From: Chryseobacterium formosense
Lineage (GTDB): Bacteria > Bacteroidota > Bacteroidia > Flavobacteriales > Weeksellaceae
Length of the DNA: 64,000 bases
Direction: 5' to 3'
NCBI RefSeq assembly: GCF_900116415.1
Contig: NZ_FPAP01000009.1
Span: 1 to 64,000, forward strand
Of the stretch, positions 39,158 to 39,428 are shown piece after piece (the first letter of the stretch is position 1; each line of letters starts with the position of its first letter). Below the pieces are notes generated by a model that did no database searches, was not told where the DNA came from, and saw nothing but the letters and a program-made list of their open reading frames with translations. A program made the position numbers and the translations under genes.

Positions 39158-39260
39158 TGTTTTAAGCTTTTGGCGAATAGCTTTTGGCTTTTGTCCTTAG
39201 CGATTCGCGTGTTTAATTTTATAATTTGATTTTAATTTTAGCTTGTTAGATTTATATATT

Positions 39261-39404
39261 AACATTAAGAATTTAAGAAAAAAAATTTATTAAAAGATAT
39301 TTTAAGAATTTGCCTTTGGCAAAATTAAGCAGGACGCTTAAATGTCGAAGATATTCTTAATCAGTCTTTAAGATGAAATTTAACTAACTAAATTTCTTAA
39401 TGTT
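39261..39404. repeat. palindromic element, copy A, between groES and groEL
   Basis: Ends AACATTAAGAATTTA (39261-39275) and TAAATTTCTTAATGTT (39389-39404) are inverted copies with one gap. The inside holds the hairpin AATTTGCC-TTT-GGCAAAATT (39307-39326) and several TTAAG/CTTAA words. It aligns over about 80 nt with 51592-51670 (shared TTAAGAATT, CTTAAA, ATATTcTTAAT and TCTTTA blocks in the same order). It does not encode a protein. Confidence 0.65.
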
Positions 39405-39428
39405 TAAAATTTAAATCAAGAAAAAATC

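What the first reader, a model, noticed from the sequence alone, without database searches (positions are those of the whole stretch)
39158..39428. Palindromic element inserted between groES and groEL, with a second copy between pyrG and yidC
The groES-groEL gap is 271 bp and contains a 144-bp element with 15-16 nt inverted ends (39261-39275, 39389-39404) and a central hairpin. A related element lies at 51561-51685, with the same order of words (TTAAGAATT, CTTAAA, ATATTcTTAAT, TCTTTA) over about 80 nt but a diverged hairpin loop. Compensating changes between the copies (TTTGCC..GGCAAA versus TTCGC..GCGAA) would mean selection on structure. In the chaperonin operon it may change the groES:groEL ratio by folding, processing or attenuation.
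Basis: partly seen in the sequence, partly recalled or inferred. Interest (0 to 1): 0.55.

Follow-up and report, generated by a model that had tools for sequence, protein, structure and literature searches.

The report
Dispersed palindromic DNA repeat in Chryseobacterium
The odd folded stretch between two chaperone genes is one of about twenty copies in this genome of a small palindromic DNA repeat scattered through the genus Chryseobacterium; it looks like a mobile passenger that keeps its mirror symmetry as DNA, not like a switch built for the chaperones.

Summary
Both window elements belong to one family: 18 distinct places in this genome at E<=0.01, matches in 39 of 60 same-genus genomes. 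A wider draw gave 12 of 16 same-genus genomes, 1 of 13 from other genera of the family, and none of the other 167. Ends read TTDAACCATTAAG...CTTAATGGTTHAA; arms carry TTAAG boxes at 10- and 8-bp steps; a three-hairpin core covaries strongly.

Covariation lacks an RNA signature: on sense strands G.U and A.C departures are about equal (36 versus 31), and most changes between copies at one site are uncompensated. One copy is flipped in place between two species. This fits a DNA palindrome spread by copying and kept symmetric by template switching.

It sits in 2 of 58 measured groES-groEL gaps, so it is no genus-wide groE regulator. Of the others, 28 carry a 23S_rRNA_IVP gene (two broken) between pairing arms and 28 hold other short inserts. 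No target-site duplication or transposase was found.

The parts
39259..39407 (-). Copy 1 of the palindromic repeat, between groES and groEL, canonical strand = groESL coding strand
   Evidence: Model R1 match 39261-39405, 103 bits; ends extended to the terminal consensus; fold z -5.0/-4.5
39396..39407 (-). 5' terminal inverted repeat of copy 1 (TTAAACATTAAG on the minus strand)
   Evidence: Read; consensus
39259..39269 (-). 3' terminal inverted repeat of copy 1
   Evidence: Read; consensus
39341..39355 (-). First core hairpin (AATATCTTCGACATT; imperfect here)
   Evidence: Helix 3 of the family structure, 6 of 6 pairs with changes on both sides
39325..39341 (-). Second core hairpin (TTAAGC..GCTTAA)
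   Evidence: Helix 4, 5 of 6 pairs with changes on both sides
39309..39323 (-). Third core hairpin (TTTGCC..GGCAAA); the C. cheonjiense copy reads TTTACC..GGTAAA at the same site
   Evidence: Helix 5, 5 of 5 pairs with changes on both sides; same-site copy; species, its element identical to L031
39158..39238 (-). Remnant of the right-hand arm of a 23S_rRNA_IVP-type insert (GCCAAAAGC words) left between copy 1 and groEL; the IVP gene itself is gone here
   Evidence: Aligns over 81 nt with the stretch between the IVP gene and groEL in L169; no IVP match in this gap
37532..39157 (-). groEL
   Evidence: ORF of 541 aa
39429..39707 (-). groES
   Evidence: ORF of 92 aa
51559..51688 (-). Copy 2 of the repeat, between pyrG and yidC, in the probable leader of yidC
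   Evidence: Model R1 match 51562-51685, 86 bits; empty and filled sites in relatives
51424..51458 (+). Terminator-like palindrome after pyrG, upstream of copy 2, recurring in the relatives' gaps
   Evidence: Seen by eye in the pyrG-yidC gaps; terminator role inferred

Best explanation
The element is a copy of a small (about 90-150 bp), non-coding, dispersed palindromic DNA repeat of the genus Chryseobacterium, of the general kind of ERIC, NEMIS or RPE elements. SHOWN: many copies, common ends TTDAACCATTAAG/CTTAATGGTTHAA, TTAAG boxes in 10- and 8-bp steps, a three-hairpin core with covariation, presence/absence at orthologous sites, no clear orientation preference relative to genes, and one in-place inversion between two species. 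INFERRED: the element spreads as DNA, probably by a transposase or recombinase that reads the helically phased TTAAG boxes. Its arms are kept complementary by renewed copying and by DNA-polymerase template switching between the arms, which homogenises arms and can invert the middle; selection on an RNA is not needed. In the groE operon and in the yidC leader it is then a tolerated passenger. It must be read through there if both downstream genes, normally essential (recalled), depend on upstream promoters. It may add an RNA hairpin that RNase III could cut, but there is no sign that this is why it is there.
For: Own-genome census: 29 model matches at E<=1, of which 18 distinct places at E<=0.01 once opposite-strand duplicates are removed; one further place, C9:247018, appeared with model R2. 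Genus: model R1 39 of 60 genomes; BLAST 24 of 60, though some of those hits, such as L039 and L056, are not copies. Wider draw: 12 of 16 same-genus, 1 of 13 other genera of the family, none of the other 167, which also serves as a negative control. Covariation on 77 aligned matches (two are opposite-strand duplicates) and 33 pairs: paired cells 89.4% versus 82.2% in shuffles, covariation score 0.203 versus 0.094, slid structures at most 0.047. No clear RNA-like wobble bias: G.T 79 versus A.C 70 on the canonical strand, 36 versus 31 on the sense strand. Left-arm box spacing 10 (88 times) and 8 (42 times); four boxes on the left arm in 38 of 75 copies. pyrG-yidC: 3 of 30 gaps read are filled, 23 plainly empty. 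In-place flip: the L118 and L151 elements align at score 90.5 in the same direction and 23.5 reversed, while their flanks match only inverted (346 and 366 versus 13 and 13), with the breakpoints at the element ends. Template switching is known to homogenise arms and invert spacers (PMC8604942, abstract read).
Against: No target-site duplication could be detected in 75 copies, and no transposase between paired ends in the stretches examined, so mobility by transposition is not demonstrated. Many copies sit at sites shared between species (46 of 75 copies at 15 sites), so much of the distribution is old and inherited. Right-arm boxes are less regular (spacing 10: 36, 18: 24, 8: 20). The in-place flip is one clean case; a second site had dissimilar near flanks and was not counted. 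Convergent over divergent neighbours looked enriched by copy (16 versus 3) but not by site (6 versus 2, p=0.29).
Confidence: 0.7

Rival explanations
1. A selected structured RNA element in the groESL mRNA that sets the groES:groEL ratio by folding, processing or attenuation.
For: Strong fold on the coding strand (z -4.5); kept in C. cheonjiense at the same site with one compensated pair; 46 of 58 groES-groEL gaps in the genus pair or fold with z below -2; G.T exceeds A.C over all same-direction pairs of copies (67 versus 39).
Against: Present in only 2 of 58 gaps; same family at unrelated loci in no preferred direction; no clear G.U excess on the sense strand (36 versus 31); at the groE site 3 single changes leave one of the two copies unpaired against 1 compensated pair.
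Confidence: 0.11
2. A bidirectional terminator or 3' end stabiliser, like many intergenic palindromes.
For: A mini-palindrome AAACCATTAAGA..TCTTAATGGTTT lies in what looks like the same spacer in three genomes (by eye); 16 convergent versus 3 divergent copies.
Against: The two window copies lie upstream of groEL and yidC; no terminator-like site was found in 39100-39480 (0 found); the convergent excess is not significant by site. Caveat: promoter-like sites of the sigma-70 type occur there at about the shuffled level (3 against a mean of 1.8), and no Bacteroidota promoter scan was run, so a promoter after the element is not excluded.
Confidence: 0.12
3. An ORF-less relative of the S23/IVP intervening-sequence elements: a selfish insert in transcribed spacers that is tolerated because its ends pair and RNase III cuts it out of the mRNA.
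For: The same groES-groEL gap carries a 23S_rRNA_IVP gene in 28 of 58 genomes, 26 with no stop in the matched stretch and two broken, with pairing arms (27 of 27 tested at z below -2); those arms are also built of short repeated words; Coxiella's S23 element is cut out by RNase III (PMC4990558, abstract read).
Against: None of 29 IVP loci read has more than one TTAAG before and one CTTAA after the gene; many TTAAG copies need not be inside transcripts; no RNA data.
Confidence: 0.1
4. A protein-binding site array (nucleoid protein, gyrase or similar), like BIMEs, maintained for chromosome organisation.
For: Phased TTAAG boxes in 10- and 8-bp steps; no clear RNA-level signature.
Against: Match numbers differ strongly between same-genus genomes, 0 to 11 (the cap; both strands counted); most changes between same-site copies are uncompensated.
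Confidence: 0.08

Closest known systems
ERIC / IRU (enterobacterial repetitive intergenic consensus)
   Same: About 127 bp, inverted ends, intergenic, co-transcribed copies; how such elements move had no experimental support in the review read (PMC2229807, passages)
   Different: Other sequence and phylum; ERIC is listed with a 7-bp TIR, target duplication and TA ends (same table); here a 13-nt terminal consensus, three-hairpin core, phased TTAAG boxes and no duplication detected
Correia / NEMIS elements of Neisseria
   Same: TIR-bounded short repeats in transcribed spacers that fold into stems; RNase III cuts NEMIS RNA (PMC10969869 and PMC2229807, passages)
   Different: 24-bp TIR with target duplication and TA ends (table in PMC2229807); no duplication found here
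Rickettsia palindromic elements (RPE)
   Same: About 150 bp palindromes (PMC10969869, passage) with a 12-bp TIR and uncertain target duplication (PMC2229807)
   Different: RPEs are noted for in-frame insertion in genes; the copies placed here lie between called ORFs (a method that ignores ORFs overlapping the element)
REP/BIME with RAYT (Y1) transposases
   Same: Dispersed intergenic palindromes
   Different: The own genome's five Y1 transposase matches have other palindromes nearby (by eye), and the model finds only chance-level matches in those loci (E 0.8 and above)
23S rRNA intervening sequences with S23/IVP gene
   Same: Paired arms, selfish insert, same groES-groEL position in relatives
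   Different: No IVP gene in the element, different arm words, not in rRNA

Membership tests
Bacterial MITE-like small mobile palindrome | Short (<200 bp), non-coding, many dispersed intergenic copies | tested here: met
   for copy 1, no ORF of 30 aa or more lies within 39158-39428. Intergenic placement: 66 of 75 copies placed between two ORFs by a method that ignores ORFs overlapping the element
Bacterial MITE-like small mobile palindrome | Terminal inverted repeats | tested here: met
   Consensus TTDAACCATTAAG at both ends over 75 copies, with variation (e.g. the first of the two C in 79% and 72%)
Bacterial MITE-like small mobile palindrome | Presence/absence at orthologous sites | tested here: met
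   pyrG-yidC: of 30 gaps read, 3 filled, 23 empty, 4 with other content or arrangement; groES-groEL: 2 of 58
Bacterial MITE-like small mobile palindrome | Target-site duplication | tested here: not met
   In 75 copies no offset 0-9 or length 2-9 passed my threshold (1.7 times the shuffled mean plus 3); AT-rich flanks and old copies limit the test
Bacterial MITE-like small mobile palindrome | Autonomous partner with the same ends | tested here: inconclusive
   Stretches of one genome, G022, with distant end pairs: 15 of the 16 ORFs of 110 aa or more in four of them scanned, 12 with other Pfam families, 3 with none, no transposase. The exact-pattern listing was incomplete
REP / RAYT repeats | Association with a Y1 transposase | tested here: not met
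   own genome only
Rfam RNA family | Match to a described structured RNA | tested here: not met
   None at gathering score over the window; only three matches at E 4.9-8.3 in the gap
rRNA-type intervening sequence with S23/IVP | IVP gene between the arms | tested here: not met
   No ORF of 30 aa in copy 1, no IVP match in its gap; IVP genes read in relatives have other arms
Structured regulatory RNA of groESL | Conserved at groESL in relatives | tested here: not met
   2 of 58 gaps
RNase III-processed mRNA spacer (NEMIS-like behaviour) | Cleavage of the transcript at the arms | not testable with these tools
   Needs RNA-seq or an RNase III assay

The most novel reading that the evidence does not exclude
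In Chryseobacterium the spacer between groES and groEL is a standing niche for RNA-level selfish inserts: S23/IVP intervening sequences that live in an essential mRNA instead of ribosomal RNA, their gene-less remnants, and unrelated palindromes such as this one. They would be tolerated because paired arms let RNase III cut them out, so that groES and groEL messages are usually separated by a removable stem.
Probability: 0.12. Interest if true: 0.72.

Novelty: new member of a known kind. Interest (0 to 1): 0.4.

Why it matters
It gives a repeat family of a common environmental and opportunistic genus, for which my searches found no description, a definition that can be searched for. It is also a caution: strong covariation in a palindromic repeat can arise at the DNA level and is not by itself proof of a functional RNA; the G.U versus A.C comparison on the sense strand and the same-site comparison are simple tests of that. 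The groES-groEL spacer offers a natural series for asking how an essential operon tolerates fold-back inserts.

Tried and rejected
Rfam: nothing. BLAST alone: too weak for such divergent AT-rich copies and partly false (L039, L056); replaced by covariance models R1 and R2. RAYT/REP origin: rejected for this genome. IVP genes as the autonomous form: rejected for the 29 loci read (L240, the 30th, gave no ORF there). Longer elements with a transposase between the ends: none seen; in the stretches read, distant end pairs were separate copies or chance matches inside genes; one of 16 ORFs and the frames of L300 were not scanned. Target-site duplication: none. Flip at a second site (L112 group): rejected after reading the flanks. 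Convergent-gene preference: lost when counted by site. Plasmid and phage collections: no plasmid match; one 59-nt match in a Marinitoga phage tape-measure gene, taken as chance. A standard promoter upstream of yidC: a conserved block is there, but the recalled Bacteroidota motif spacing does not fit, so I call it only probable. Paper searches found no description of this family: listings seen, passages of two papers read; one listing; open-access PMC texts only. For IVP genes in mRNA spacers, searches found no paper; one search listed 12 of 33, and passages of one (PMC5524665) show a four helix bundle gene in a table beside a nicotinate-mononucleotide adenylyltransferase gene, without discussion of it in those passages.

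Rows dropped: two opposite-strand duplicates (L094, L096) from the 77-row alignment before the counts (one search used all 77); 9 of 75 copies had no callable neighbour on one side. Two alignment columns with loose pairing (11 and 49) were left out of the sense-strand count; the canonical-strand count with all columns was 79 versus 70, without them 51 versus 50, and in the 18 best matches 12 versus 17. One search counts one pair at each of 14 sites, since the fifteenth has only an inverted pair. Of 60 same-genus genomes, G039 gave no groEL match and G021's fetched stretch held no groES, leaving 58. The shuffles are my own simple dinucleotide-preserving ones.

Full report
OBSERVATION. groES (39429-39707) and groEL (37532-39157) lie on the minus strand with 271 bp between them. 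The gap holds an imperfect palindrome at about 39259-39407 whose outer arms are 88% complementary over 17 nt. Its RNA folds with z -5.0 and -4.5 on the two strands, and the pyrG-yidC copy with -4.9 and -4.1; none of 200 shuffles folded as well.

A FAMILY. BLAST in the own genome gave only fragments, but reading them showed further full copies. A covariance model from 15 copies (A2, R1) found 29 matches at E<=1 in the own genome, 18 distinct places at E<=0.01 once opposite-strand duplicates are removed. In the genus, 39 of 60 genomes match at E<=1e-6 (at most 55 candidates per genome were scored, so counts are lower bounds). A wider draw of 196 genomes of the order with model R2 gave 12 of 16 same-genus, 1 of 13 from other genera of the family, and none of the other 167. 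The output lists only 4 of those 167; the other 163 are taken, from the order of the list, to be of other families. Only 17 candidates per genome were scored there. An exact pattern named one carrier of the groE copy, Chryseobacterium cheonjiense, whose element is identical to that of G009.

ANATOMY. The termini read TTDAACCATTAAG and its inverse as a consensus of 75 copies; conservation stops outside, in A+T-rich flanks, and no direct repeat flanking the element passed my test. The arms carry TTAAG boxes, on the left mostly 10 or 8 bp apart (88 and 42 times), with four boxes in 38 of 75 copies; the right arm is less regular. The core is a stem bearing three hairpins. On 77 aligned matches, 33 pairs: 89.4% of cells are standard pairs (shuffled 82.2%), 20 pairs have changes on both sides, covariation score 0.203 (shuffled 0.094; slid versions at most 0.047). 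The alignment was fitted to R1, whose structure held the outer stem and the second and third hairpins but not the inner stem or the first hairpin; the first hairpin nevertheless shows changes on both sides in 6 of 6 pairs, the inner stem in 2 of 6.

RNA OR DNA? If RNA structure were selected, departures should be G.U rather than A.C on the transcribed strand. They are 36 and 31 among co-directional copies (p=0.63); on the canonical strand 79 and 70. Copies at the same genomic site in different genomes (15 sites, 46 copies) were compared. In one pair at each of 14 sites, 438 cells, there were 14 changes to G.T, 15 to A.C, 24 to other mismatches, 8 other changes, and 5 compensated doubles where 2.3 are expected. 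Over all 49 same-direction pairs, not independent, the figures are 67 to G.T, 39 to A.C, 78 other single changes and 24 compensated doubles in 1516 cells; this G.T excess is a result against my reading. On balance the structure at a site mostly loses pairs, as neutral DNA would. One site shows the whole element inverted between two genomes with the same flanks and breakpoints (L118/L151). Template switching between inverted arms is known to homogenise arms and to invert spacers (PMC8604942, abstract), and it explains covariation and inversion together. That link is my inference.

CONTEXT. Of 75 copies 66 could be placed: 47 between co-directional genes, 16 convergent, 3 divergent. By site the figures are 23, 6 and 2 of 31 determined of 35; at 26 sites with co-directional copies the direction relative to the genes is 12 same, 14 opposite. 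At pyrG-yidC, of 30 gaps read, 3 carry it, 23 are plainly empty (176-232 nt), one (L259) has a different insert of about 200 nt and three have other content or arrangement. The copy there lies after a terminator-like palindrome and a conserved AT-rich block, hence probably in the yidC leader.

THE groE GAP. Among 58 same-genus genomes the gap holds this element in 2, an IVP sequence in 28 (26 without a stop in the matched stretch, L170 and L223 broken), and short inserts of 80-119 nt in 28. Five exact IVP stretches were confirmed as PF05635, E 6e-36 to 2e-41. Arms around 27 IVP frames pair with z below -2 in 27 of 27; both element gaps and the broken L223 fold with z below -2; of the 28 short inserts 16 do and 12 do not. 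In the own genome the right-hand remnant of an IVP-type insert remains at 39158-39238. In other families of the order the gap is mostly short: 6-57 nt in 18 of the 23 loci read (L318-L340), 79-518 nt in the other five.

CONCLUSION. The element is best described as a new family of small dispersed palindromic repeats, MITE-like in size, ends, dispersal and site polymorphism, but without a detected target duplication or transposase; I do not call it a MITE in the strict sense. Its groE copy is most likely a tolerated passenger. An RNA-level side effect is possible and untested.

Noticed in passing
L163-L223 (groES-groEL gaps of 58 same-genus genomes): The spacer carries a 23S_rRNA_IVP (PF05635) sequence in 28 of 58 genomes (two broken), this palindrome in 2 and several kinds of short insert in 28; 46 of 58 pair or fold with z below -2.
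   Followed up: partly
L225-L254 and L193-L195: IVP genes in the genus sit between other genes too, flanked by inverted arms made of short repeated words (arm duplex -35 to -58 kcal/mol in the 29 of 30 loci read, without a shuffle control; several are the groE site itself); they look like intervening-sequence elements living outside rRNA. A paper table shows one beside a nicotinate-mononucleotide adenylyltransferase gene in Flavobacterium columnare (PMC5524665, passages).
   Followed up: partly
L118 (1501-1625) versus L151 (501-627): Whole element inverted in place between two genomes, same breakpoints.
   Followed up: yes
L309, L311, L312: Mini-palindrome AAACCATTAAGA..TCTTAATGGTTT in what looks like the same spacer in three genomes; deletion derivative or terminator.
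   Followed up: no
L089-L093: Five Y1 (RAYT-like) transposase matches in the own genome, with different REP-like palindromes nearby; one has an internal stop.
   Followed up: no
L259 (pyrG-yidC gap of G001): A different insert of about 200 nt near the position of copy 2.
   Followed up: no
L306, L307: Copies of the repeat inside tandem duplications of about 230 and 395 bp in one genome.
   Followed up: no
L088: Another, unrelated repeat type (AAGGCGCAAAG words) picked up as a weak match in the own genome.
   Followed up: no
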